Positions 29,425 through 43,882 of a stretch of DNA of 64,000 nucleotides are shown here, piece by piece. The DNA is taken from positions 124,001 through 188,000 of the forward strand of contig CAJXVC010000002.1 in NCBI GenBank assembly GCA_913060975.1, given 5' to 3'. How positions within the stretch are numbered: position 1 is the stretch's first letter; every line of letters starts with the position of its first letter. Made by a program: the position numbers and the translations under genes. Source of the stretch: an uncultured Gammaproteobacteria bacterium. GTDB taxonomy: Bacteria; Pseudomonadota; Gammaproteobacteria; Pseudomonadales; Pseudohongiellaceae. The notes under the pieces were generated by a model that did no database searches, was not told the origin of the DNA, and saw only the letters and a list, made by a program, of their open reading frames with translations.

Positions 29425-29516
29425 ATTTGCTCCTGGTCTTGTAGGTGGCCTTGATTGCGGTCGATGATCGGAGCCTATATGAGCCTTTTCCCCCATTTCT
29501 TCCCCATGTAAAATTT

Positions 29517-30383
29517 ATGGGTATGAGTGAGACTAAAAACAGTATTCAGGGCGATGCGAATGATGATGTGCAGCATTTGACGCTGGAATACCGTCTGGCC
29601 GCTCTATCGGAATTTCGAAAATTCGTAGCTACTGAAATGAAGCCGAATGGGAAGAAGAAGTGGACGGTGGCACCAATTCTGGATGAGTTTTCAAACTTAA
29701 CTAATAAGCGAAAGACCGAATTTGAACTCCGCTATGATTCCAAAAAGTTAGAAAACGTCATTACAGGCAGGTACGACATTATCCGTGACACGTATTTTCA
29801 CAATGTCGTAAGTCAATTCCTCAGAAAGCATTGTCCTGAGCGAATTGAGAAGTTTGCAATGAGGGATGATTTGCAGGCATTTGGTCGGCAATTGAATGCT
29901 TTCTACTATCAAGTTCCTGATGACGATACGATAGCCGCCATTACGGATTCCCTTACTGAAGTCAGGGTATCTGAGGTAATTTTTAAGCCCGCTGAAAACT
30001 ATACGAGCCTGCGCCATCCCTCAGGACAGATTCGATTGTTTTTATCCTATGTGGCCTCAGCCAAAGTTAAAGGGCTTTTTTACTCTACAGCCTTTGTCTA
30101 CCCAGAGCCTTATCATCACGCAATTGGTGTATGGCTGCCCATTTACGGATTTCATTGTTTGCGCGGCTACCAGGACAAACTTCCTTTTTTGTTTACCTTG
30201 CAAAAATCCGAATCTACCCGAGAGGATAGTCCCCCGACATGGGGAGTTGATGGATATTGTTTGACCGTCCACCAATTTCTCTTTAATAGTGAAATTGAGG
30301 ATTTTGTAGAAATTAGCGACAAGGAGGTCGTTTCTGTAGCAAACAATATCCTTGGCAGCCTGATAGCAAGTGAGGCCGACTAA
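29517..30383 (+). CDS. Protein of unknown function paired with an ankyrin protein
   Basis: A soluble protein of 288 aa transcribed divergently from the mobilization operon. The N-terminal half is helical and basic (NLTNKRKTEFELRYDSKKLE, then NVITGRYDIIRDTYFHNVV) and could bind nucleic acid. The C-terminal half looks like a beta-rich sensor or enzyme domain (RLFLSYVASAKVKGLFYSTA, AIGVWLPIYGFHCLRGYQ). No known active-site motif is visible. Starts at 29517 (MGMSET) and 29523 (MSETKN) are both possible, while the frame is open further up. Its stop overlaps the ankyrin gene ATG (TAATG), so the two products are probably made together. Unrecognised; could be a regulator of the divergent operon or a cargo defence component. 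Confidence 0.6.
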   Translation: MGMSETKNSIQGDANDDVQHLTLEYRLAALSEFRKFVATEMKPNGKKKWTVAPILDEFSNLTNKRKTEFELRYDSKKLENVITGRYDIIRDTYFHNVVSQFLRKHCPERIEKFAMRDDLQAFGRQLNAFYYQVPDDDTIAAITDSLTEVRVSEVIFKPAENYTSLRHPSGQIRLFLSYVASAKVKGLFYSTAFVYPEPYHHAIGVWLPIYGFHCLRGYQDKLPFLFTLQKSESTREDSPPTWGVDGYCLTVHQFLFNSEIEDFVEISDKEVVSVANNILGSLIASEAD

Positions 30384-30787
30384 TGGGACTGCCAGCTAGG
30401 AAATTATCGTATTACAAAGATCGAGGGGAAATGGAATACCCACCGAATATTCTTGAGGGCGCGTTATTTAACGATATTGAGGAAATTGAAGCCGCAATAG
30501 CTGAAAATCCTGCTTGCATCAAAGAAGTAACCCAACATGGTATGAATGCGCTGCAACTGGCTCTGAGCCATGGTTGTTTCGAGGCCGCAGAATACCTGGC
30601 GGAAGCAGGTGTTGATCCCCTTCACAGAGATATGTTCGGTCGTACTGCTGTAATCATTGCTTCTCAGCTTGGTTTTGAGCGAGGTGCAAAAATCGCCTGG
30701 GAAGCAGAGGTTCGAGCATTGCCAATGCATATTGATGATCAAAATGAGATTGTAATTGATGGGGTGCAGCCACCCACTCCTTTATAA
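30383..30787 (+). CDS. Ankyrin-repeat protein
   Basis: A short protein (134 aa) with about three ankyrin-like helices-turn units between residues 22 and 105, including HGMNALQLALSHGCFEAAEYLAEAGVDP and MFGRTAVIIASQLGFERGAKI. Ankyrin repeats bind other proteins, and the TAATG overlap with the preceding gene suggests its product is the partner. No signal peptide or enzymatic domain. It could act as an inhibitor, sensor or assembly factor for the 288-aa protein. Confidence 0.72.
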   Translation: MGLPARKLSYYKDRGEMEYPPNILEGALFNDIEEIEAAIAENPACIKEVTQHGMNALQLALSHGCFEAAEYLAEAGVDPLHRDMFGRTAVIIASQLGFERGAKIAWEAEVRALPMHIDDQNEIVIDGVQPPTPL

Positions 30788-31351: not shown

Positions 31352-31555
31352 ATGGAGATGATAAATGCTATGAATGATCAGATTTTGACCTTGAAAGAGG
31401 TTGCGACCTACCTAAAGCTCGCTGAGAAGACCGCCTACAAACTGGCCGCGGCGGGTAAACTGCCCGGTTTCAAGGTGGGGGGTAGCTGGCGATTCAAACG
31501 GGAAGATATTGATCGCTGGATTGAAGAACAGAAATCTGAGAACAAAAGTTCGTAA
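31352..31555 (+). CDS. Excisionase/MerR-type helix-turn-helix DNA-binding protein
   Basis: A protein of 61-67 aa consisting of one winged helix-turn-helix (LTLKEVATYLKLAEKTAYKLAAAGKLPGFKVGGSWRFKREDIDRWI), the classic DNA-binding domain of the excisionase family. In-frame ATGs occur at 31352, 31358 and 31370; GGAG at about 31355 favours 31370 (MNDQILTL). It lies 30 bases before hsdM on the same strand. Such small proteins often precede type I restriction operons and may control their expression. It may equally act as the recombination directionality factor of the element. Confidence 0.82.
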   Translation: MEMINAMNDQILTLKEVATYLKLAEKTAYKLAAAGKLPGFKVGGSWRFKREDIDRWIEEQKSENKSS

Positions 31556-31585: not shown

Positions 31586-33067
31586 ATGCCAGGTGAAAAA
31601 TTAACCTTATCACAGCTAGAACAATACCTTTCGAAGGCGGCCTGGATACTCAAAGGGCCAGTGGATGCCTCAGATTTCAAGGTCTACATCTTTCCCTTGT
31701 TATTCTTCAAGCGGGTGTCAGATGTATATGATGAAGAATACCAGTCAGCGCTTGAAGAATCCGATGGAGATGCTGAATATGCATCCTTACCTGAAATGCA
31801 TCGCTTTGAGATTCCAGAGGGCTGCCATTGGCGTGATGTTCGTGAAACCACCACCAACGTGGGACAAGCCATTGAACATGCCTTGCGCGGAATCGAAAAA
31901 GCAAACCAAGAATATCTCTACGGCATATTTGGTGATGCCCAATGGAGTAACAAGAATAAGCTATCCGATAGCCTGCTAATCAACCTGATTGAGCACTTTT
32001 CTCAATACATCTTGGGCAGAGAAAACGCGAATCCAGATATGCTGGGTAACGCCTATGAGTATTTGATCAAACACTTTGCCGACCTAACCAACAAAAAGGC
32101 CGGAGAGTTCTACACTCCGCGATCCGTAGTGCATTTACTGGGCTTGATCCTTGATCCCCATGAAGGTGAAACAATCTACGACCCCGCCTGCGGAACAGGC
32201 GGAATGCTGTTGGAGTGCGTTGATCACCTCAAACATAATAATGAAGACTACCGAACGCTAAAGCTCTACGGTCAGGAAAAGAACCTAACGTCCAGCTCAA
32301 TTGCTCGTATGAACATGTTCCTGCACGGTATTGAAGATTTCAAAATACTGCGGGGCGATACTCTCAGGCAGCCAGCCTTTTTCGAGGCTGATGGTCTTCA
32401 AACTTTCGATTGTGTCATAGCAAACCCACCATTCTCCCTTAAAGATTGGGGCGCCGAGAATTGGGCCAATGATCCATATGGACGCAATATCTCTGGAGTT
32501 CCGCCACAAGGTAACGGTGATATGGCCTGGGTGCAGCACATGGTGAAATCCATGAATAGCACGGGAAGAATGACTGTTGTGCTGCCTCATGGAGCGCTAT
32601 TTCGCAAAGGCGCGGAAGGTAAAATTCGTAAAGCCTTAATTGAACATGATCTGCTAGAAGCCGTAATCGGCTTAGGCCCCAATGTGTTCTATGGAACACA
32701 ACTGGCAGCATGTGTGATGGTATTTAAGCAAAACAAGGATGCCGCCAAAAAAGGCAAAGTCCTATTTATAGATGCCTCAGACCAAATTCGTGTAGGCCGA
32801 GCCCAAAACTTTTTAGAGCCAAAGCATGTTCAACAAATCCATGGATGGTATCAGGCGTTCGAGGATGTGGATAACTTCGTAAAAGTGGCAACGCTTGAAA
32901 ACCTATTAGAGAACGACTGCAACCTGAATATTCCTCTCTACGTCGAGAAAATTATTGAAGACAACTTGCCGAGCGTAGAAGAAGCCATGGCCGAATTGAA
33001 AGAGGCATGGGAAGCAAGTCTGGAAGCGGAAGAAAAGTTCAAAGCAGTACTGGAGAAGTTTATTTAA
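31586..33067 (+). CDS. hsdM: Type I modification methyltransferase subunit HsdM, copy 1
   Basis: Adenine-N6 methyltransferase subunit. The N-terminal helical HsdM_N region (residues 9-150: LEQYLSKAAWILKGPVDASD, FPLLFFKRVSDVYDEEY) precedes the catalytic domain with SAM motif I DPACGTGGM (199-207) and catalytic motif IV NPPF (280-283). Length 493 aa is normal. The stop TAA overlaps the ATG of a second hsdM. The two proteins align without gaps over at least the first 290 residues but clearly differ in sequence, so this is an old duplication. Both retain intact motifs I and IV. Confidence 0.95.
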   Translation: MPGEKLTLSQLEQYLSKAAWILKGPVDASDFKVYIFPLLFFKRVSDVYDEEYQSALEESDGDAEYASLPEMHRFEIPEGCHWRDVRETTTNVGQAIEHALRGIEKANQEYLYGIFGDAQWSNKNKLSDSLLINLIEHFSQYILGRENANPDMLGNAYEYLIKHFADLTNKKAGEFYTPRSVVHLLGLILDPHEGETIYDPACGTGGMLLECVDHLKHNNEDYRTLKLYGQEKNLTSSSIARMNMFLHGIEDFKILRGDTLRQPAFFEADGLQTFDCVIANPPFSLKDWGAENWANDPYGRNISGVPPQGNGDMAWVQHMVKSMNSTGRMTVVLPHGALFRKGAEGKIRKALIEHDLLEAVIGLGPNVFYGTQLAACVMVFKQNKDAAKKGKVLFIDASDQIRVGRAQNFLEPKHVQQIHGWYQAFEDVDNFVKVATLENLLENDCNLNIPLYVEKIIEDNLPSVEEAMAELKEAWEASLEAEEKFKAVLEKFI

Positions 33068-34542
33068 TGTCGGCAAAAGAACTAGATCAAAAATCTCTAG
33101 AAAAGTACCTGTGGGGTGCGGCCACTGCCTTGCGCGGTACTATCGATGCAGGTGATTACAAGCAATACATCTTTCCGCTGCTTTTCTTTAAACGTATCTC
33201 CGATGTATACGATGAAGAATTCGAAAATGCACTGGCAGAATCCGATGGGGATTTAGAGTACGCAGCATTCGCCGAAAACCACCACTTCCAAATCCCAGAA
33301 GGCGCACACTGGAAGGACGTGCGTGAAACAACGGTAAACGTAGGCCTTGCCCTGCAAAACGCAATGCGGGCAATTGAAAAAGCCAACCCAGACACGCTGG
33401 AAGGCATATTTGGTGATGCAAGCTGGACAAACAAAGATCGCTTGTCCGACGCGATGCTTACTAACCTGATAGAGCATTTTTCCCAGCACAAACTGAATTT
33501 GAGTAACGTGCCTGACGACAAGCTGGGTAATGCCTACGAATACCTCATCAAGGAATTTGCTGATGATAGCGGCCATACCGCCGCCGAGTTTTATACAAAC
33601 CGAACCGTCGTAAAGCTGATGACCCTGATTATGGACCCGCAGCCGGGGGAATCTGTTTACGATCCCACCTGTGGTTCTGGCGGTTTACTCTTGAATTGTG
33701 CCCTGCATTTGAAAGAAGAAGGTAAAGAGTACCGAACACTCAAGCTCTATGGTCAGGAGATAAATCTCATTACATCGGCCATCGCCCGTATGAATATGTT
33801 TATGCACGGTATAGAGGAATTCGATATTGTGCGGGGTAATACCTTGTCCAACCCTGGATTTCTGGAGAATGACGAACTTAAGAAGTTCAATGTCATTCTT
33901 GCAAACCCGCCGTACTCGATTAAATCCTGGGATAGAAAGTCATTCGAAAACGATCCCTTTGGCCGGAATGTTTGGGGAACACCACCACAAGGATGTGCCG
34001 ACTATGCGTTTCAGCAGCATATTCAAAAAAGCCTCGACGAGAAAAATGGTCGATCAATTTCGCTTTGGCCGCATGGAATTTTGTTTCGTGATGCGGAGGC
34101 TGAGATGCGCCGCAAGATGATAGAGCAAGACCAAGTTGAATGTGTTATCGGTTTGGGTCCAAATCTTTTCTACAACTCGCCGATGGAAGCCTGCCTGCTG
34201 ATTACTAAGACTAAAAAAGAAAAATCCAAGCAAGGGAAGATCCTAATCATCAATGCAGTTAAAGATGTGCGGCAGGATAAAAATATTGCATATCTTGAAA
34301 GCAACAACATAAACCGGATTTATGCAGCATATAAAGAATTTAGTGATCAGGAAGGATTCTGCAAAGTGGTTACTGTAGACGATGTATTTCGGAAAAAGGC
34401 CAGTTTGAATGTTGGTTTATATGTTAGCAATGTCGTTGGTTCAAAATTCAAGATGGGTGTTGAAGAGTCGCATGCGAATTGGTCTTCTTCCTCCGAAAAG
34501 CTTAAATGCAGCATGATTCAACTTTTCGAATTGGTGGGTTGA
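33067..34542 (+). CDS. hsdM: Type I modification methyltransferase subunit HsdM, copy 2
   Basis: Paralogue of the preceding gene with the same layout: LEKYLWGAATALRGTIDAGD, FPLLFFKRISDVYDEEF, motif I DPTCGSGGL (199-207) and motif IV NPPY (280-283). The start at 33067 overlaps the first hsdM stop (TAATG), giving 491 aa; the frame is open to 33007 but that would lie inside the other gene. The C-terminal 100 residues diverge most from copy 1. hsdS starts two bases after its stop. It may pair with copy 1 to give an asymmetric modification complex. Confidence 0.94.
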   Translation: MSAKELDQKSLEKYLWGAATALRGTIDAGDYKQYIFPLLFFKRISDVYDEEFENALAESDGDLEYAAFAENHHFQIPEGAHWKDVRETTVNVGLALQNAMRAIEKANPDTLEGIFGDASWTNKDRLSDAMLTNLIEHFSQHKLNLSNVPDDKLGNAYEYLIKEFADDSGHTAAEFYTNRTVVKLMTLIMDPQPGESVYDPTCGSGGLLLNCALHLKEEGKEYRTLKLYGQEINLITSAIARMNMFMHGIEEFDIVRGNTLSNPGFLENDELKKFNVILANPPYSIKSWDRKSFENDPFGRNVWGTPPQGCADYAFQQHIQKSLDEKNGRSISLWPHGILFRDAEAEMRRKMIEQDQVECVIGLGPNLFYNSPMEACLLITKTKKEKSKQGKILIINAVKDVRQDKNIAYLESNNINRIYAAYKEFSDQEGFCKVVTVDDVFRKKASLNVGLYVSNVVGSKFKMGVEESHANWSSSSEKLKCSMIQLFELVG

Positions 34543-34544
34543 TC

Positions 34545-35774
34545 ATGGAGGCAATAAAAGCAGAACCAAGCATGATTAAATTAAGCAGCTTAGATAAATC
34601 AAATTGGAAGCAGTATCGATTTGATGAGATAGCGAAAAGTGTTTCCGAAAGAGTTGACCCAAATAACACTGACTTAGAAATTTATATAGGGCTAGAACAT
34701 CTTGATTCCGGGTCAGTACATATAAAAAGATTTGGCAAGCCAGAGGATGTAAGCGGTCAAAAGCTAAAGTTTTACAAAGGCGATGTTATTTTTGGTCGCC
34801 GTCGCGCATATCAGCGTAAAGCTGGTATTGCAACATTTGATGGATTTTGTTCGGCTCATGCTCTGGTACTAAGGGCTAATCCAGAAGTAATTGATCCTGA
34901 TCTGTTTCCGTTTTTTCTACATTCTGATTCATTCATGAATCGAGCAATTGATATTTCAGTAGGTTCCCTTTCTCCCACCATTAATTGGGGTGCTCTCAAA
35001 GAAGAGAGATTTTTGCTCCCTCCGTTAGATCAACAGCATTTGTTTTCCAAGCTTTTTTGGGCGCTAGATGCTTCTTCGGAATCCAATATTCTTCTTAAAA
35101 AGAAGATGAATAGATTTTTAGAGGCAGAGATTGAACAGAAAATTCATGGCGAAAAAATTAATGGTTATACGATCAATCAGGTGATTGATAATTTGGAAGA
35201 AAAAATCTCTATATCAAGTCTGGGCTCATTAGGGGAGGTTTTTAAAGGTAAGGGAATACCAAAAGCGGATGTTGTAGAGGAGGGTATTCCATGTGTTCGT
35301 TATGGTGAGCTATATACGAAACATCACAGAATAATTCGCGAGTTCCATTCTTCGATTTCCAGCGAGTCTACAAAGGCCGCGACAAAGCTTGAGTGTGATG
35401 ATGTTCTCTTTGCGGGATCAGGAGAAACTATCTCTGAAATTGGAAAATCAGCAGCATTTACTGGAAATGACATTGCCTACGCTGGGAGCGATATACTGAT
35501 TTTCAGGCCGCGAGATATGGATGGAGTATATTCTGGCTATTTGATGAATTCTCAGCTAGTTAGGCAGCAGCTCAATAAACTTGGGACGGGCGCCACTGTT
35601 ATGCATGTTTATAAGACTGATATAGAAAGTATTAAAGTCCCTGCTAGAAAGAGGAAGCTTCAGGAGGAAATTGGGGTATATCTTGAAAATATATCTAATC
35701 GAATATTCATTTTAGATGAAAAGATTAATGCTACCTCCGAATTCCAGAAACAAATAATTAATCAGGTGTTTTAA
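34545..35774 (+). CDS. hsdS: Type I specificity subunit HsdS
   Basis: Target-recognition subunit. Two target-recognition domains are visible: about residues 12-180 (from WKQYRFDEIAKSV to LPPLDQQ) and about 220-395 (from SISSLGSLGEVFKGKG to KVPARKRKLQEEIG). Each is followed by a helical spacer (FSKLFWALDASSESN and YLENISNRIFILDEK), the normal HsdS repeat plan. The start at 34545 (MEAIKAEP) directly follows the hsdM copy 2 stop; the frame is open to 34506. The gene is noticeably richer in A+T than the adjacent hsdM and hsdR, as expected if recognition domains have been exchanged. The DNA target cannot be deduced. Confidence 0.92.
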   Translation: MEAIKAEPSMIKLSSLDKSNWKQYRFDEIAKSVSERVDPNNTDLEIYIGLEHLDSGSVHIKRFGKPEDVSGQKLKFYKGDVIFGRRRAYQRKAGIATFDGFCSAHALVLRANPEVIDPDLFPFFLHSDSFMNRAIDISVGSLSPTINWGALKEERFLLPPLDQQHLFSKLFWALDASSESNILLKKKMNRFLEAEIEQKIHGEKINGYTINQVIDNLEEKISISSLGSLGEVFKGKGIPKADVVEEGIPCVRYGELYTKHHRIIREFHSSISSESTKAATKLECDDVLFAGSGETISEIGKSAAFTGNDIAYAGSDILIFRPRDMDGVYSGYLMNSQLVRQQLNKLGTGATVMHVYKTDIESIKVPARKRKLQEEIGVYLENISNRIFILDEKINATSEFQKQIINQVF

Positions 35775-35776
35775 GG

Positions 35777-38746
35777 ATGGGATTCACTGAACTAAATAGC
35801 GTTGAGCACTACATCATCAGCCAATTGACGGGTGTAAATCTCAATAAGAGCAAAGTGGCTGAGACACCTTTGCAGCCCTATGGCACTGAGTGGCAATATC
35901 AAAATTCGGAGCAGCTTGGGCGTGGCGTTAATGAAGTGCTGGTTGAGCCGCAGGTGAAAGAGGCGTTACTGCGTCTTAACCCTGAAATTCAGGCCAAGCC
36001 TGAGTTGGCTGATGAGGTTATTTACAAGCTCCGCGCTATTTTAATTTCGGTCAATCAAATCGGCCTGGTAAAGGCCAATGAAGAATTCTTCTTGTGGTTG
36101 ACAGGGGAGAAAACCATGCCTTTTGGCGAGAATAATCGCCATGTACCTGTTCGCTTGATCGACTTCGACAATCTCACCAACAATCAATACATCGTCACCA
36201 ATCAGTTCCGTATCCATCACCGCGAAACCAAAATACCTGATGTGGTGATGCTGATTAATGGCATTCCAGTCGTAATTGGTGAAGCTAAAACACCTATCCG
36301 GCCTTCTGTGAGCTGGCTTGACGGTGCAAATGAAATTCACAATATCTACGAAAATGCAGTTCCACAGCTCTTTGTGCCGAATATTTTGTCCTTTGCCACC
36401 GAAGGCAAAGAGCTGTATTACGGCGCGATACGTTGCCCGTTAGAGTTTTGGGCTCCGTGGCGGCTAGAGAATGATGACGAGAAAATTGCTAAAAGCCTTG
36501 GTCTTGGCGGTGTGGGCAAGGAGCTTAAAGATTTGCTCAGTCCGGCTCGCTTGCTCGATATAATGCGTAACTTCTCCTTGTTTACCAGCAACAGCAAGAA
36601 GCAGCGCATGAAGGTCATACCGCGCTTCCAGCAATACGAGGGAGCGAACAAGATTGTTCAACGTGTTGTTGAGGGCAAAATCAAAAAGGGCCTGATTTGG
36701 CACTTCCAGGGCTCAGGTAAATCATTGCTCATGGTCTTTGCTGCGCAAAAACTCCGCCGCGAAGCCTCCCTTAAAAGTCCAACCGTTATTGTGCTGGTAG
36801 ACAGAACCGACCTCGACACGCAAATTAGCGGCACTTTCAATGCCGCTGACATCGCTAATGTCGAAACCACTGAAAGCATTAAAGAGTTACAGCAAATGCT
36901 GGAGCGGGATACCCGCAAGATCATTATCTCGATGATCCATAAATTCCGCGATGCTAAACCAGACATGAATACCCGCGACAATATTATTGTTCTGGTAGAT
37001 GAGGCGCACCGAACCCAGGAAGGCGATCTTGGTCGCCAAATGCGGGCTGCATTACCTAATGCTTTCCTATTCGGCTTAACGGGAACTCCAGTCAATAAGG
37101 CGGATAAAAATACATTCTGGGCTTTCGGCGCAGAGGAAGATCACGGCGGATATATGAGCCGCTATACCTTCCATGACTCCATCCGAGATGAAGCAACCCT
37201 ACCGCTGCATTTTGAGCCGCGCTTGGTTGATGTGCACGTAGATAAAGATTCTTTGGATCAGGCTTTTGAGAACCTGAAGGAAAGCGCGGGCTTAACGGAT
37301 GAAGAAGCCGATGCCTTAAACCAGAAGTCTGCAAAGATGGCGGCATTCCTCAAAGCACCAGAGCGCGTTGAGAAGATCGTGAATGACATTGCCGTACATT
37401 TCAAAGAGAAGGTTTTACCTCACGGCTTTAAGGCAATGATCGTCACGCCGGATCGCCATGCATGTGTTCAATACAAGGAAGAGCTGGATAAGCACTTTCC
37501 CGTCGACGCGAGCAAGGTCGTTATTTCCACAACAGCTAATGACGACCTCGAATTCAAACAGAAATGGGCCGTAGATAAAAGCCAGCAGGAAAAGATAGTC
37601 GATGAATTCAATGATGCTACCTCAGAGCTTAAATTCATTATCGTTACCGCTAAGCTTTTGACGGGCTTTGATGCACCAATACTTCAAACGATGTATTTGG
37701 ACAAGTCCATTAAGGATCATACGTTACTACAGGCGATTTGTCGGACCAACCGCCTGTATCCGCATAAAACGTTTGGCAGAATTGTCGATTACTTTGGGGT
37801 GTTTGACGATGCAGCAAAAGCTCTAGAGTTTGATGAAGAGAGTTTACAGCAGGTTGTTACCAATCTTGCAGAGCTAAGGTCAAAACTCCCAAAAGCAATG
37901 GCTGACGCTTTATCTCATTTTGAAGGCGTTGATCGTACTCTGGAAGGGTTTGAAGGATTAGAAGCTGCACAGGATGCCATTGAGACAGACGAGAAGAAAG
38001 ATGCCTTTGCAGCAGATTTCAAATATCTGGCCAAACTCTGGGAGTCGCTATCGCCGGACAATATACTGGATGTCTATAACACTGATTATAAATGGCTTGC
38101 CCAGGTCTATGAATCCGTTAAGCCTGCCTCAGACAACATTGGCAAATTGCTTTGGCTAACCTTGGGCGCTCAGACAACTCAGCTAATCCATGAAAATATT
38201 CATATAGGTGAAGTTCATTCCCTTGATGAGTTCGTTATGGATGCGGATGTTATCGAAGACATCTTCAACAACCCCGATCCAAGAAAGACAAAACAATTAG
38301 AGAAAGCGTTAGCGAAGCGCTTCAAGGACCGAACCGACCTGCCGGTATTCAAGTCGTTGAGCGAGCGGCTTGAAACGCTCAGAGATAAGGCTGAAAAAGG
38401 GTTAATCGCCTCAATCGACTTTGTGAAAGAGCTTTGTAAGATCGCTAAAGAAACTCTCCAAGCCGAGAAGGAGCTTGAAGAAGAAAGACAAGAAAAATCA
38501 CCAAAAGCTGCTCTTACAGAGCTTTTCTTGGAGTTAAAGAGCGACCAAACTCCCGCAGTTGTCGAGCGGGTAGTTAATGACATTGATTCCATTGTTCGCA
38601 TAGTACGCTTCCCTGGATGGCAGAATACTACCGGAGGGGAGCGCGAAGTTCAAAAGTCGCTGCGTAAAACACTTTTGAAATACAAGCTGCATACTGATCA
38701 AGATTTGTTTGATCAGGCTTATGCATATATTAGGGAATACTATTGA
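35777..38746 (+). CDS. hsdR: Type I restriction endonuclease/translocase subunit HsdR
   Basis: ATP-dependent translocase that cuts unmodified DNA. The N-terminal PD-(D/E)xK nuclease has P154-D155 and E169-A-K171 (IPDVVML, GEAKTP). The SF2 motor has Walker A QGSGKS near residue 310, DEAH (408-411), GLTGTP and the motif VI-like QAICRTNRLYP. A C-terminal helical region mediates complex assembly. At 989 aa it is full length with no frameshift. It starts two bases after hsdS, so hsdM-hsdM-hsdS-hsdR form one operon. Confidence 0.95.
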   Translation: MGFTELNSVEHYIISQLTGVNLNKSKVAETPLQPYGTEWQYQNSEQLGRGVNEVLVEPQVKEALLRLNPEIQAKPELADEVIYKLRAILISVNQIGLVKANEEFFLWLTGEKTMPFGENNRHVPVRLIDFDNLTNNQYIVTNQFRIHHRETKIPDVVMLINGIPVVIGEAKTPIRPSVSWLDGANEIHNIYENAVPQLFVPNILSFATEGKELYYGAIRCPLEFWAPWRLENDDEKIAKSLGLGGVGKELKDLLSPARLLDIMRNFSLFTSNSKKQRMKVIPRFQQYEGANKIVQRVVEGKIKKGLIWHFQGSGKSLLMVFAAQKLRREASLKSPTVIVLVDRTDLDTQISGTFNAADIANVETTESIKELQQMLERDTRKIIISMIHKFRDAKPDMNTRDNIIVLVDEAHRTQEGDLGRQMRAALPNAFLFGLTGTPVNKADKNTFWAFGAEEDHGGYMSRYTFHDSIRDEATLPLHFEPRLVDVHVDKDSLDQAFENLKESAGLTDEEADALNQKSAKMAAFLKAPERVEKIVNDIAVHFKEKVLPHGFKAMIVTPDRHACVQYKEELDKHFPVDASKVVISTTANDDLEFKQKWAVDKSQQEKIVDEFNDATSELKFIIVTAKLLTGFDAPILQTMYLDKSIKDHTLLQAICRTNRLYPHKTFGRIVDYFGVFDDAAKALEFDEESLQQVVTNLAELRSKLPKAMADALSHFEGVDRTLEGFEGLEAAQDAIETDEKKDAFAADFKYLAKLWESLSPDNILDVYNTDYKWLAQVYESVKPASDNIGKLLWLTLGAQTTQLIHENIHIGEVHSLDEFVMDADVIEDIFNNPDPRKTKQLEKALAKRFKDRTDLPVFKSLSERLETLRDKAEKGLIASIDFVKELCKIAKETLQAEKELEEERQEKSPKAALTELFLELKSDQTPAVVERVVNDIDSIVRIVRFPGWQNTTGGEREVQKSLRKTLLKYKLHTDQDLFDQAYAYIREYY

Positions 38747-38791: not shown

Positions 38792-39607
38792 ATGCCTTGG
38801 ACAAGCGAACATCTCGAATGGCTTAATGATACTGGTGATGTGATTACGATATCCACTGGTGAATCAGTGCCAGTTTTCGAGTTTGCATATGATATTGCTA
38901 ATGAAGAGATTATGTCTCACTGGGCAACCCATTTCAGAAATCATTATTGTTCTGATGACGAAATAGAAGCACTGAAACCTCAAGGGATGTCTAATGCTGA
39001 ATATCTGTTAAATCTAAAATTTCCTGATGGTGCTCCTGGGCTCGGACCAAGTACCCGGTCTGGAGACTTTGCAGAAATATTAGTCGCTGATTATTTAACA
39101 TTTCTTCACGATTACTATGTTCCAAGAACCCGGTACGACCGGAAGATAATTGGCAATGAGTCTTCCAAGGGCTCAGATGTTTTAGGTTTTAAGCAAAAGA
39201 ACAAAAAGCCATCTAACAAAGACGAATTAATAATTTATGAGGTTAAAGCGCGCCTTTCTGAAAACAATGCCAGAAATACTTTGCAATCAGCAATTGACGA
39301 CAGCTCAAAGGATGAGGCTAGGCTTGCGGAATCGTTAAATGGTGCAAAGCAAAGGTTATACGATCAGAAAGATTTTGCCGGAATGGGTATTGTCTCAAGA
39401 TTCCAACAAAATGTTGACCAACCATATAAAACAAAATTTGGAGCGGCAGCGGTTCTTACTGACAGCTCATGTTGTATAGAAACTTTGACTGAAGCTTCTA
39501 CTCAGGAACATATATCTCGAACGCAGTTAGAAATGATTGTGATAAGAGGCCCTGTATTGATGTCTTTAGTACACAGCCTATACGAGAGGGCTGCTAATGA
39601 AGCTTGA
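38792..39607 (+). CDS. hamA: Hachiman antiphage protein HamA (DUF1837 nuclease)
   Basis: Predicted effector nuclease of the Hachiman defence system. The DUF1837 core is recognisable as STRSGDFAEILVADYL (Glu95), SSKGSDVLGF (Asp129) and IIYEVKARL (E150-V-K152), together a PD-(D/E)xK-type catalytic set. Length 271 aa fits the family. It overlaps the following helicase gene by 11 bases, and the HamA-HamB pairing is the defining gene order. Family knowledge: HamB helicase holds HamA inactive until it meets damaged or phage DNA, after which HamA degrades DNA. It begins 45 bases after hsdR, so it may share the restriction operon's transcript. Confidence 0.85.
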   Translation: MPWTSEHLEWLNDTGDVITISTGESVPVFEFAYDIANEEIMSHWATHFRNHYCSDDEIEALKPQGMSNAEYLLNLKFPDGAPGLGPSTRSGDFAEILVADYLTFLHDYYVPRTRYDRKIIGNESSKGSDVLGFKQKNKKPSNKDELIIYEVKARLSENNARNTLQSAIDDSSKDEARLAESLNGAKQRLYDQKDFAGMGIVSRFQQNVDQPYKTKFGAAAVLTDSSCCIETLTEASTQEHISRTQLEMIVIRGPVLMSLVHSLYERAANEA

Positions 39608-42600
39608 AGCGCCCTCTAAGAAAATGCTGGCAATTACGAAATCGAAAGCAAAGATGTATGAGTTTGCAATTGATGAAGCATCCCATATAGCGCTGCCTGT
39701 CGATCCACGAAAGCTATTGGTTACGACTATTGGCATATTGGGCGATCTGTCTGCTTTCGAAGCTCGTGAAGAACAGCAGGTTGAAGAGACTGGTGAACAT
39801 GAAGAGTTAAAGTATGAACTTATATCCGTTGGGCAATATTTTGATGCTTTGATTCAGTCTCATCTGGCTGATGAGATGGCTATTTATCTAAAGGTTATAG
39901 GTTCGGCAGCCTACTATTTAGCGAACATGCCTGGCAGCTCCATCGTTCTAGCTAAAAGTTTAGCCTATAACACAGAGCTGCTCACTGACACTAATCTTGA
40001 GGGGATTTTGATATGGATATTAAAGTCCAACTTCGAAGAAGATTGGTATCGCGTCGAAGATACCTATTTAACTCAGATAATAGATGATGTCGGCTACGCC
40101 ACTCGAAGTTACTTTAGTTTAGGCGTTGATGCTCAGAGCTTTAAACAGGCAATACAGGTCTTAAGGCATGAGGTTTACGAAAAAGGTTCTGATAGAGAGC
40201 TTTTGTTCGCCGATATTATTTCATCTATCCTTCTAAGAAAAGTAGAAAACTCGTCAATAAACTGTTTGCCGAAATATACACAAATCCCCATAGAACAATG
40301 GGTGGATGTAATTACTAAGCCGAAATTTGTTCAAGAGTTTTGGCCTGCTCAGAGGTTGCTGGGCGAGCAAGGAGTTTTGTCTGGTATATCTGCTGTTGTG
40401 CAAATGCCCACGAGTGCGGGAAAGACAAAATCGACAGAATTAATAGTTAGAAGCTCGTTTTTGTCAGGACGCTCTGACGTTGCTGTAATTGTAGCGCCAT
40501 TCAGAGCCTTATGCAGGGAGATTACAGCTACATTTGAACAGGCGTTCGAAGGTGAAGATGTAAATATCAATGAATTGCAAGATGTTCTGGATATTTCCGA
40601 TAGTGATGACGAGCTTATAAGATTTTTAACCGGACAAACTGAACAGGACGGAATAGCTACCAGGTCTATAGTTGTTACCACACCGGAGAAACTTGTTTAT
40701 CTTCTCAGGCATGAACCTGCGTTAGCAGACTCAATAGGCTTGCTAATTTTCGACGAAGGGCATCAGTTTGACACTGGAAGGAGAGGCGTCACCTATGAAC
40801 TATTGATGGCCTACCTCAAATCCCGCGTAGGCGATGATGTTCAAAAGGTTTTGATCTCCGCAGTAATGGCTAACGCAAATTCTATTGGTGAATGGCTTAA
40901 TGGAGAGGCCGGCGTTGAGATTCAAGGAGCAGGATGTTTACCAACAGTAAGAAGTACAGCCTTCGCGAGTTGGCAAACTGCAATGGGGCAACTCCAATAT
41001 ATCGATCAAGATCGTGAGGCCGATAGAGATTTTTTCGTTCCTAGGGTAATTGAGCAAATAAACCTCGGAAGGAGAGGTCGAGAGAGGAAAGATCGGCTTT
41101 TTCCAGCCAAAAACGATAATCCCAGTGTCGCAGCTTATTTAGGGGTCAAATTATGCCTTCAAGGGCCTGTTGCAATCTTCTGCGGTATAAAGAGTACTGT
41201 CACGTCAATATGCGAGCTTTTAGTTGATTGCTACGAGAGAGGGCTTGTTTTACCTTCGCCGAATACTTCAAGTGATCAAAGCGAATTGGACAAAATTTCG
41301 TACCTTTCCAGCTTGCATTTTGGAGAAGAGTTTATATTTACTCGTTCGATTTCTCTTGGAATATTGCCGCACAGTTCCAACATTCCAAATGGTATCCGTG
41401 TTTCTGTAGAGTGGGCAATGGAATCCAATAAGTCTGTGTTGGTAGTGTGTACCTCAACTCTTGCTCAGGGTGTGAATTTGCCGATTAGGTACTTAGTCGT
41501 TTCAAGTACATTTCAAGCCGGGCAAGAAATTACCACGCGTGATTTCCACAATCTTATCGGACGAGCAGGCAGAGCTGGATACCATACTGAAGGGAGTGTC
41601 ATTTTTGCGGATACAGACGTTTTTGATAAGCGCAATAATTTTCGCGAAAGGTGGCGATGGCAAAGAGCTATGCATTTGCTCGATTTTACTAATGCGGAGG
41701 ACTGCGCTAGTAGCCTACTGGACTTGATCTCACCTTTTGTTTTTGTAGAACTTAATGTTGATGTTATCCAGTTCATTGCAAACCCAAGCGGCTATAGACA
41801 AAGCTGTATAGACGCAGGGAATCAAAACGCTATTGATATCAGTTCGCTACTGGATCAGATGGATTATAAAGAAGCTTTAATCGAAGCAATAGAAAGCTAT
41901 TTTTTGTCCTATTTGAAAGACAATCCAGGTGCGCCTCAAACGTTCTTTGATGAGTTGGCCCAAGGAACATTGGCTTACTTTTTGTCAGACGACGATCAGA
42001 AACAACAACTACGGACGGCATTTTCACTTATCGCGAGTAGAATTCTTTCTGTGCCCGAAGAGAAAAGGCCATTCTTCGGAAAATCGTTGCTGGGGTTAAA
42101 AAACCTATTCTTAATTGAAAACTGGCTTGATGAAAATTGGGGCGAAATGGCACAAGCTCAAAGCTCTGATGAATTTCTTGTGATTTGTTGGCCTTTGCTA
42201 TCTCAGCTTAATAACAACAAGATGTTTCTCAAAATAAAGCCTGAAAACGTTATATTAGAGTTCGCTAAATTATGGATTTCGGGAAGTAGCTACGCTGATC
42301 TGCTTGGTCACATGGATCAATTAGGTGCTTATTATCAAGCAGGGTCTCAGCAAAGAACTATTAAAATGGACCATGTAGTAGACTTAGCAGACGGTGCGCT
42401 TTCTTTTGATTCCATGTTATATGTCGGAGCAATAGCTGATGTGGCCGAGGGTAAAGGATTAGACGATGATGTATTGGAGCTTCTTAGGAGCTTGCAAACA
42501 CGCCTAAAACTTGGACTCTCAAATAGCCTTGAAATGTGGCTTTATTCTCGTGGTTACGTGGATAGGGAGGTATGCAAAAATCTTGCTCTAGCTCTTCAAG

Positions 42601-42713
42601 AGCAAGGTGTTGATATTGATGGCTTTGATTACGATATATTAAATACTCATAAGCATGTTGTAGACGAATGCCTGAATGAATTTCCGACCTACTTCAGTAG
42701 AAATAGGCGCTAA
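39597..42713 (+). CDS. hamB: Hachiman helicase HamB
   Basis: SF2 helicase, Ski2-like, of 1038 aa. An N-terminal helical region of about 245 residues precedes the motor, with AQRLLGEQGV (Q-like motif), Walker A MPTSAGKTKS (270-279) and the DEGH box (386-389). Motif V is STLAQGVNLP and motif VI FHNLIGRAGRAGYHTEG. The C-terminal ~350 residues are helical without a recognised domain. It starts inside hamA (11-base overlap), indicating coupled translation. No internal stops, and all motor motifs are intact, so the system looks functional. Base composition is AT-rich, like hamA. Confidence 0.87.
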   Translation: MKLEAPSKKMLAITKSKAKMYEFAIDEASHIALPVDPRKLLVTTIGILGDLSAFEAREEQQVEETGEHEELKYELISVGQYFDALIQSHLADEMAIYLKVIGSAAYYLANMPGSSIVLAKSLAYNTELLTDTNLEGILIWILKSNFEEDWYRVEDTYLTQIIDDVGYATRSYFSLGVDAQSFKQAIQVLRHEVYEKGSDRELLFADIISSILLRKVENSSINCLPKYTQIPIEQWVDVITKPKFVQEFWPAQRLLGEQGVLSGISAVVQMPTSAGKTKSTELIVRSSFLSGRSDVAVIVAPFRALCREITATFEQAFEGEDVNINELQDVLDISDSDDELIRFLTGQTEQDGIATRSIVVTTPEKLVYLLRHEPALADSIGLLIFDEGHQFDTGRRGVTYELLMAYLKSRVGDDVQKVLISAVMANANSIGEWLNGEAGVEIQGAGCLPTVRSTAFASWQTAMGQLQYIDQDREADRDFFVPRVIEQINLGRRGRERKDRLFPAKNDNPSVAAYLGVKLCLQGPVAIFCGIKSTVTSICELLVDCYERGLVLPSPNTSSDQSELDKISYLSSLHFGEEFIFTRSISLGILPHSSNIPNGIRVSVEWAMESNKSVLVVCTSTLAQGVNLPIRYLVVSSTFQAGQEITTRDFHNLIGRAGRAGYHTEGSVIFADTDVFDKRNNFRERWRWQRAMHLLDFTNAEDCASSLLDLISPFVFVELNVDVIQFIANPSGYRQSCIDAGNQNAIDISSLLDQMDYKEALIEAIESYFLSYLKDNPGAPQTFFDELAQGTLAYFLSDDDQKQQLRTAFSLIASRILSVPEEKRPFFGKSLLGLKNLFLIENWLDENWGEMAQAQSSDEFLVICWPLLSQLNNNKMFLKIKPENVILEFAKLWISGSSYADLLGHMDQLGAYYQAGSQQRTIKMDHVVDLADGALSFDSMLYVGAIADVAEGKGLDDDVLELLRSLQTRLKLGLSNSLEMWLYSRGYVDREVCKNLALALQEQGVDIDGFDYDILNTHKHVVDECLNEFPTYFSRNRR

Positions 42714-42891: not shown

Positions 42892-43366
42892 TTTAACCTC
42901 CAGTTTTGGAGGCCGCGCCTATCGCGGCCTTTGATGGGGCCGCTTATGCGCGTTAGGTCATGGTTTGCACCTGTGGTCGAAATATATGGAGAAGCATGTA
43001 AGTCATGCTTGCGGATTTAATGGGCTATCGCAGCTAAGGGATGGACAAAGTAAAGGCCGCGTAACGCGGGATTGGGAAACGGACGTTAATTGAATGTGAT
43101 GAGAGGAGAATAGATAGAACAATGAAAACGCTTCTCGCGTTTTAAGATAGATTCACCTTGGAGGTGAGTTAGTCGGAAAGAAAAGATGGGGCATTGCATC
43201 CCCTCAAAATCAAGAAAAATGACGGTTTCCAGCAAAGCTAGACCCTCCGCAATTTTTCTGGATTTTTTCACCCCCGCCTAGTCGGCCTAGTCGCCAGAGG
43301 TTCATGAGCAGCGCACCACAAGCGGTGCTTGTAAGAACCTCAAAAGCGAATTTAGGAGCAAAGACA
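42892..43366. other. Hairpin-rich leader region upstream of ardA
   Basis: About 475 bases without a normal gene. Inverted repeats include GGCCGCG/CGCGGCC at 42911-42929, AAGCATG-TAAGT-CATGCTT at 42992-43010 and AAAACGC-TTCTC-GCGTTTT at 43125-43143. The last coincides with a seven-codon frame (MKTLLAF) preceded by GAGGAG. This density of stem-loops before an antirestriction gene resembles leading regions of transferable elements. Promoters cannot be assigned with confidence. Confidence 0.45.
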
Positions 43367-43882
43367 ATGAGCGAAGAAATCAGAATTTATGTGGCAGACC
43401 TTGCAGCCTATAACAACGGTAAGTTACACGGTGTATGGATAGATGCGACGCAAGACATTAACGACATTCAAGACCAGATTAACGCCATGTTGGCCGAAAG
43501 CCCCGAAGGCTTCGCGGAAGAATACGCCATTCACGACTACGAGGGTTTTGGCGGTTATTCGGTGAGCGAATACGAAGGTATTCAGTCATTGCATGAAATT
43601 GCCTGTTTCATTGAAGAGTATCCAGACCTTGCAGGGGAATTGCTGAGCCACTTTGGCGGATATCTTGAGGATGCCAGAAAGGCTATGGAAGAGAATTATT
43701 CCGGTTGCTACAAGTCCCTGGCGGACTATGCAGAACAACTAACCGAAGACATCAGCCAGATTCCTGAAAATCTCGCTTACTACATCGACTATGAGCGGAT
43801 GGGGCGTGATATGGATTTAAGCGGAGATATTTACACCATTGAAACGGCCTATGAAGAAGTACATGTTTTCTGGAGTCATTGA
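43367..43882 (+). CDS. ardA: Antirestriction protein ArdA
   Basis: DNA-mimic protein that binds type I restriction-modification enzymes and blocks restriction during entry of the element into a new host. The N-terminus IRIYVADLAAYNNGKLHGVWIDA is diagnostic. The protein is strongly acidic throughout (many Asp and Glu, for example YSVSEYEGIQSLHEIA and DIYTIETAYEEVHVFW), as expected for a mimic of bent B-DNA. The start at 43367 follows AGGAGC; the frame is open to 43304. Length 171 aa is typical. It is encoded beside an intact type I system in the same element. Confidence 0.93.
   Translation: MSEEIRIYVADLAAYNNGKLHGVWIDATQDINDIQDQINAMLAESPEGFAEEYAIHDYEGFGGYSVSEYEGIQSLHEIACFIEEYPDLAGELLSHFGGYLEDARKAMEENYSGCYKSLADYAEQLTEDISQIPENLAYYIDYERMGRDMDLSGDIYTIETAYEEVHVFWSH

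What the first reader, a model, noticed from the sequence alone, without database searches (positions are those of the whole stretch)
31586..35774. Type I restriction locus with two different, colinear HsdM genes for one HsdS
The two HsdM proteins align without gaps over their first 290 residues, with motif I and motif IV at identical positions (199 and 280), yet differ in sequence, including NPPF against NPPY. Genes are coupled (TAATG). Known type I enzymes use two copies of a single HsdM. Here an M1-S-M2 heterotrimer, with each M serving one half-site, or alternative complexes with different activity, is possible.
Basis: partly seen in the sequence, partly recalled or inferred. Interest (0 to 1): 0.6.

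Follow-up and report, generated by a model that had tools for sequence, protein, structure and literature searches.

The report
Type I restriction enzyme, two methylases
This DNA encodes a bacterial anti-virus enzyme that very probably marks one DNA strand on adenine and the other on cytosine with two sister methylases; the arrangement is real and widespread, but it was already described in 2016 and its structure was solved in 2022.

Summary
In detail: hsdM1 (31586-33067) and hsdM2 (33067-34542) overlap by one base and are followed by one hsdS and hsdR. The two HsdM are 52% identical with motifs at identical positions. The best solved relatives of M1, M2 and S are the three PacII subunits (7vru), in which NPPF-M1 makes m6A and NPPY-M2 makes m4C. 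The window carries each family's marks (M1 AGEF/NPPF; M2 AAEF/NPPY, Arg23 = PacII Arg29), and TRD1 keeps the PacII residues that contact the CCC half-site. An M1 partner is seen in 77 of 80 fetched loci; in the other 3 M2 lies at the contig start. One further result, not found in the papers seen: in the window's clade the C-terminal third of M2 is exchanged together with TRD1 (nearest neighbour by M2 401-491 gives the TRD1 type in 62 of 62 rows, about 20 expected). In 12 loci outside that clade the coupling is absent (5 of 12), so co-adaptation is not established. Verdict: new member of a known kind.

The parts
31370..31555 (+). small helix-turn-helix gene (61 aa, HTH_17) just upstream; possible operon regulator (inference)
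   Evidence: Pfam PF12728 2.1e-19; DNA similarity to L001, L019, L020 and L067 extends over it
31586..33067 (+). HsdM1: NPPF/AGEF methyltransferase subunit, predicted m6A
   Evidence: best solved relative PacII M1 7vru_A 1.9e-165; motifs; tree
33067..34542 (+). HsdM2: NPPY/AAEF methyltransferase subunit with Arg23 (= PacII Arg29), predicted m4C
   Evidence: best solved relative PacII M2 7vru_B 2e-176; motifs; tree
33967..34539 (+). C-terminal third of M2 (residues 301-491), exchanged together with TRD1 in this clade
   Evidence: sliding profile, nearest-neighbour test, DNA identity drop in L017, L019, L020
34545..35774 (+). HsdS specificity subunit, 409 aa, two target recognition domains (an upstream in-frame ATG at 34506 is possible)
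   Evidence: Methylase_S, two stretches; 7vru_C 8.3e-53
34599..35039 (+). TRD1 (S residues 19-165), predicted to read CCC and present C to M2
   Evidence: PacII base contacts R75, R76, H94 and backbone contacts Y78, Q79, K81 are R86, R87, H105, Y89, Q90, K92 here
35232..35594 (+). TRD2 (about S residues 230-350), predicted to present A to M1; half-site sequence unknown
   Evidence: position behind the central conserved region; the best stretch against 7vru_C ends at S residue 182 and no TRD2-to-TRD2 match was reported
35777..38746 (+). HsdR, nuclease plus SWI2/SNF2 translocase, 989 aa
   Evidence: HSDR_N 2e-29, SWI2_SNF2 2.4e-73; TIGR00348 549.6 bits, cut-off 284.55

Best explanation
A complete non-canonical (m6A/m4C) type I restriction-modification system of the PacII kind. 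S holds one M1 and one M2. TRD1 reads a C-containing half-site (predicted CCC) and presents cytosine to M2 (NPPY), which makes m4C on one strand. TRD2 reads the other half-site and presents adenine to M1 (NPPF), which makes m6A on the other strand. HsdR joins to cut DNA that lacks the marks. Shown here: gene order, motifs, residue conservation, tree position. Inferred from homology: assembly, base modified, half-site, restriction.
For: PacII subunits are the top solved hits for M1 (7vru_A, 1.9e-165), M2 (7vru_B, 2e-176) and S (7vru_C, 8.3e-53). AGEF/NPPF in M1, AAEF/NPPY and Arg23 in M2; the same split in 71 of 71 M1 rows and 79 of 79 M2 rows. Catalytic and M1-M2 interface residues and most DNA-contact residues named in PMC9613975 are conserved, read off. 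An M1 partner in 77 of 80 loci. M2 rows form one clade (100/100) next to M1, apart from single-HsdM relatives. Mechanism: PMC9613975.
Against: Four PacII M2 residues named in the paper differ here: R11 is E5 (contact to TRD2), D19 is K13, K168 is E163, R410 is K405 (read off). PacII itself sits on a long separate branch (its near relative L132), so it is a distant model. No methylome is available. PacII M2 also accepts A in vitro, so NPPY does not prove m4C. Both M proteins score below the curated cut-off of NCBI's hsdM model (221.7 and 208.5 against 242.75), as a divergent subgroup may.
Confidence: 0.93

Rival explanations
1. Recent redundant duplication: one HsdM is dispensable or decaying.
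For: 52% identity between the two shows that they are paralogues.
Against: Both are intact with full motifs. The M2 rows from several phyla form one clade (100/100), so the split is old and both copies were kept.
Confidence: 0.02
2. Two alternative enzymes (M1-S-M1 and M2-S-M2) share one S.
For: PacII M1 alone with S keeps partial m6A activity (PMC9613975).
Against: In PacII, M2 alone does not bind S, and M1 with S gives only a 1:1 partial enzyme. The M2-specific Arg29 that reaches into M1 is kept as Arg23, and is Lys in 71 of 71 M1 rows.
Confidence: 0.03
3. Heterotrimer as proposed, but both M subunits modify adenine, so NPPY does not mean m4C here.
For: PacII M2 can methylate A when the target base is changed.
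Against: TRD1 keeps the three base-contact and three backbone-contact residues checked for the CCC half-site, so the base offered to M2 should be C.
Confidence: 0.05

Closest known systems
PacII M1M2S (Pseudomonas alcaligenes; PDB 7VRU, 7VS4; PMC9613975)
   Same: two HsdM, one S; AGEF/NPPF and AAEF/NPPY; M2 Arg29 equivalent; TRD1 residues for CCC; best solved relative of every methyltransferase subunit
   Different: no TRD2-to-TRD2 match reported, so another second half-site is expected; M2 R11, D19, K168 and R410 are changed; PacII's near relative L132 lies on a long branch outside the window's clade
The m6A/m4C type I systems of Morgan et al. 2016 (NAR 44:9413; not held; known here through PMC9613975)
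   Same: the NPPF/NPPY two-family rule
   Different: specificity of the window system is undetermined
Classical type I systems such as EcoR124I (7bst)
   Same: family of M, S and R
   Different: one HsdM only; the window proteins score far less to it (5.3e-57 and 7.9e-45) than to PacII

Membership tests
non-canonical m6A/m4C type I R-M (M1M2S) | two different HsdM genes with one HsdS (and an HsdR for restriction) | tested here: met
non-canonical m6A/m4C type I R-M (M1M2S) | M1 with AGEF and NPPF | tested here: met
   positions 172 and 280
non-canonical m6A/m4C type I R-M (M1M2S) | M2 with AAEF and NPPY | tested here: met
   positions 172 and 280
non-canonical m6A/m4C type I R-M (M1M2S) | Arg29 in M2, not in M1 | tested here: met
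   Arg23 in window M2, Lys23 in M1; R in 79 of 79 M2 rows, K in 71 of 71 M1 rows
non-canonical m6A/m4C type I R-M (M1M2S) | M1-M2 interface residues (PacII M1 D25, R252; M2 D33, D36, K38, R130) | tested here: met
   read off: M1 D27, R256; M2 D27, D30, K32, R125
non-canonical m6A/m4C type I R-M (M1M2S) | TRD1 of the cytosine-presenting kind | tested here: met
   R86, R87, H105 (base contacts) and Y89, Q90, K92 (backbone) as in PacII
non-canonical m6A/m4C type I R-M (M1M2S) | m6A on one strand and m4C on the other | not testable with these tools
   needs a methylome
non-canonical m6A/m4C type I R-M (M1M2S) | heterotrimer M1:M2:S 1:1:1 | not testable with these tools
   needs co-purification
classical type I R-M (M2S) | one HsdM gene | tested here: not met
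   two intact HsdM genes; both below the cut-off of TIGR00497 hsdM (221.7 and 208.5 against 242.75)
MADS / BREX methylation-linked defence | MAD2 or PglX score above the curated cut-off | tested here: not met
   80.5 and 55.5 bits against 720; 24.4 and 22.1 against 500

The most novel reading that the evidence does not exclude
In this clade the specificity module is not TRD1 alone but TRD1 together with the C-terminal third of the m4C subunit M2, from about residue 301: a co-adapted cassette that crosses a gene boundary and spreads between phyla as one piece, while M1 serves any TRD2. A new cytosine half-site would then have to be acquired with its matching methylase tail.
Probability: 0.25. 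Interest if true: 0.5.

Novelty: new member of a known kind. Interest (0 to 1): 0.3.

Why it matters
As a member of a known kind it adds a complete m6A/m4C operon with a predicted CCC half-site and a probably different second half-site, and documents that the two-HsdM arrangement is old and spread over several phyla. If the M2-tail/TRD1 cassette is functional co-adaptation, it would set a rule for engineering m4C specificity: TRD1 could not be swapped freely in this clade. Searches in which a report of this could have shown: (one search returned no paper); no title, abstract start or passage that I saw tells it, but these are listings, and Morgan et al. 2016 is not held and was not read.

Tried and rejected
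Recent redundant duplication: rejected. Alternative homodimers: disfavoured. MADS and BREX: scores far below cut-offs. Link of the M1 tail to TRD2 (the mirror of M2/TRD1): not seen, partial rho -0.05. Co-adaptation of M2 tail and TRD1 as a general rule: not upheld outside the window's clade. In the 12 other loci with full M1, M2 and S the M2 tail follows the rest of M2 (0.91) and TRD1 only weakly (0.42; 71 of 2000 shuffles as high), nearest neighbour by M2 401-491 gives the TRD1 type in 5 of 12, and within 8 loci of one supported group rho is 0.03 and 2 of 8. Classical control (23 of 41 loci with an adjacent S-sized ORF, not checked to be HsdS): only partly informative, because TRD1 are unrelated in most pairs (median identity 0.17). 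The script used an offset of 6 for all PacII M2 residues, right only up to about residue 105 (5 after that), so its rows from 167 upward are one off; residues quoted here were read off. An earlier quick tree gave M1 a support of 90; the careful one gives 74/90, and that is reported. Structure prediction and fold searches were not run: solved relatives at this similarity made them redundant. PMC6158711 was looked at in found passages only and gave nothing on the question.

Full report
WHAT IS THERE. Five genes in a row on the + strand: a 61-aa helix-turn-helix protein (31370-31555, HTH_17 2.1e-19), hsdM1 (31586-33067), hsdM2 (33067-34542), hsdS (about 34545-35774) and hsdR (35777-38746). M1 and M2 overlap by one base (TAATG). 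They are 52% identical over 482 residues and ungapped up to M1 residue 324; AxEF (172), motif I (199) and motif IV (280) sit at identical positions.

WHAT IT IS. Against the sequences of solved structures the best match of M1 is 7vru_A (1.9e-165), of M2 7vru_B (2e-176) and of S 7vru_C (8.3e-53); the classical EcoR124I HsdM is far behind (5.3e-57 and 7.9e-45). 7VRU is PacII M1M2S (PMC9613975; the tie between entry and paper is from the protein names and my recall). Of that paper I saw the outline and abstract, passages found by term and parts 1 and 2 of 3 of the Results. [quoted passage not shown] 2016, not held) has two HsdM: M1 with AGEF and NPPF makes m6A, M2 with AAEF and NPPY makes m4C; M1 binds S first and M2 joins; TRD1 presents CCC to M2 and TRD2 presents GCAAT to M1; Arg29 of M2 reaches the entrance of the M1 pocket.

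RESIDUE TEST. Window M1 has AGEF/NPPF, window M2 AAEF/NPPY, and Arg23 of M2 aligns with PacII Arg29 (Lys in M1). Read off the alignments: PacII M1 D25, E170, F171, R252, N276, F279, S280, R336, T367, R401 are D27, E174, F175, R256, N280, F283, S284, R340, T371, R405. PacII M2 K15, D33, D36, K38, R130, K167, H175, F180, N285, Y288, S289, K291, R346, F373, S376 are K9, D27, D30, K32, R125, K162, H170, F175, N280, Y283, S284, K286, R341, F368, S371. Four named M2 residues differ: R11 is E5, D19 is K13, K168 is E163, R410 is K405. In S, PacII base contacts R75, R76, H94 and backbone contacts Y78, Q79, K81 are R86, R87, H105, Y89, Q90, K92, so a CCC-like half-site is predicted for TRD1. No TRD2-to-TRD2 match to 7vru_C was reported, so the second half-site is unknown.

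HOW WIDESPREAD. A scan of genome contigs with M2 found 184 relatives; the best 80 were kept, so what follows on these loci is a sample ranked by similarity to the window M2. 77 of 80 have an M1 upstream; in L021, L050 and L054 M2 begins at the contig start. Of 162 locus-by-gene cases (window included) 12 were dropped because the ORF was broken, cut or absent; of the rest 71 of 71 M1 rows are AGEF/NPPF/Lys and 79 of 79 M2 rows AAEF/NPPY/Arg. With M1 as query, so independent of M2: 15 of 397 genomes of the window's phylum match at 1e-120, and 10 of them (own genome included) hold a neighbouring NPPF/NPPY pair; 11 of 395 genomes of the phylum of G452 (the genome of L038, Flavobacterium hydatis) match at 1e-180. 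Of the 10 newly fetched of these, 9 show an NPPY M2 in the stretch (L135 in two frames); L137 shows M1 only, with 3.9 kb of contig behind it and no M2, S or R. In L129 of the first group no M2 was found either, but only 1.4 kb of contig follows. Among the 57 other genomes of the 'relatives' search one (G039) has a close pair and the 36 of the same genus have none: a patchy, mobile-looking locus.

TREE. Careful maximum-likelihood tree of 84 rows: window plus 14 of the 80 loci, 37 rows of the second set, 5 single-HsdM relatives and 12 of 41 classical HsdM. M1 and M2 rows together are one clade (100/100) apart from the single-HsdM relatives, which are all NPPF. The 32 M2 rows are one clade (100/100). 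The 35 M1 rows are one side of a branch only at 74/90 (73% of 200 bootstrap trees), so M2 may have arisen beside or from within M1. NPPY is the derived state, and both copies were kept. The tool warns of long branches (L132, L131, singles). PacII is represented by L132, whose M2 matches 7vru_B with 991 bits.

AN ADDITIONAL OBSERVATION. Three near relatives (L017 Gilvimarinus, L019, L020 Parahaliea) have about 80-99% DNA identity to the window over M1, the first two thirds of M2 and HsdR, but drop to about 30-60% from about 34050 to 35700, that is the last third of M2 plus S (L020 regains 61-78% behind 35250, over TRD2). Over 62 rows (window plus the 61 of 80 loci with full M1, M2 and S), identity of M2 320-480 follows TRD1 (Spearman 0.78; 0.777 with the M2 N-part held fixed) and hardly M2 6-300 (0.10), M1 (0.06-0.11) or TRD2 (0.02). 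In 30-residue windows the switch lies at about M2 residue 300 on one side and at the end of TRD1 (about S residue 165) on the other; M1 shows no such switch; Mantel 0 of 2000 shuffles. The row with the most similar M2 401-491 has the same TRD1 type in 62 of 62 cases, by M2 301-400 in 53, by M2 6-290 in 30, by M1 401-490 in 26, by TRD2 in 27; about 20 expected. TRD1 types (H 30, D 24 in three subtypes, K 5, T 3, named after S residue 105 = PacII H94) have M2 signatures, clearest for K (ALGKN, 5 of 5) and T (EAMILVG, 3 of 3); H and the main D type hardly differ between M2 330 and 380 and differ further on.

AGAINST READING TOO MUCH INTO IT. In 12 loci outside the window's clade the coupling is absent (M2 tail with M2 N-part 0.91, with TRD1 0.42; nearest neighbour 5 of 12; in 8 loci of one group 0.03 and 2 of 8), and H-type and D-type TRD1 occur with nearly the same M2 tail (L138/L139: M2 tail 88%, TRD1 48%). 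M2 and S lie within 100 bases in 77 of 80 loci of the first clade but in only 5 of these 12, so linkage (crossovers in the conserved core of M2 carry the tail along) may explain much; yet L138 and L143 are adjacent and uncoupled. Against adjacency alone: classical loci with hsdM next to an S-sized ORF include pairs with 97-99% N-parts, 88-93% C-parts and unrelated TRDs; but other pairs there fall to 65-66% in the C-part, the last 80 residues follow the N-part weakly (0.17-0.18), and few pairs are informative. At DNA level in L017, L019 and L020 the decline runs over about codons 300-340 rather than at one point. Ranking the sample by M2 similarity can weaken the M2 N-part to C-part correlation but should not create the TRD1 link.

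VERDICT. A real, intact m6A/m4C type I system by every sequence test: new member of a known kind. The M2-tail/TRD1 cassette of this clade is the part that a specialist might not expect; its cause is open.

Noticed in passing
38792-42713: A Hachiman defence pair (HamA 271 aa, PADLOC PDLC00161 4.8e-109; HamB helicase 1038 aa, PDLC00188 1325.9 bits) directly follows hsdR; of the 80 loci only L017 shows both within the flanks held, which are often too short to tell.
   Followed up: partly
43304-43882: An ArdA antirestriction gene (1.1e-46) lies behind the restriction and Hachiman genes; ArdA inhibits PacII in vitro according to PMC9613975. L067 has a similar stretch behind its operon.
   Followed up: no
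L002-L080, between M1 and M2: In 61 of 77 loci a gap of over 300 bases separates M1 and M2. Of 9 of the genes found there, 3 are GmrSD-like, 1 Schlafen/AlbA, 1 PIN, 1 DUF4145 and 3 without a Pfam family. The window is among those without cargo (16 of 77 loci have a gap of 100 or less).
   Followed up: partly
29445-30787: A 312-aa protein without a Pfam or NCBIfam match (weak PADLOC PD_DExK 0.00097) and a 134-aa ankyrin-repeat protein sit upstream of the operon.
   Followed up: no
L144-L148: Loci with one HsdM in the fetched stretch, 46-49% identical to window M1 and all NPPF, are the closest relatives outside the M1/M2 pair: candidates for the pre-duplication state.
   Followed up: partly
plasmids NZ_CP101463.1 and NZ_CP109265.1: Exiguobacterium and Streptomyces plasmids hold M2 relatives at 61.6% and 57.0% identity with two matching places each, so the pair may also travel on plasmids of other phyla.
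   Followed up: no
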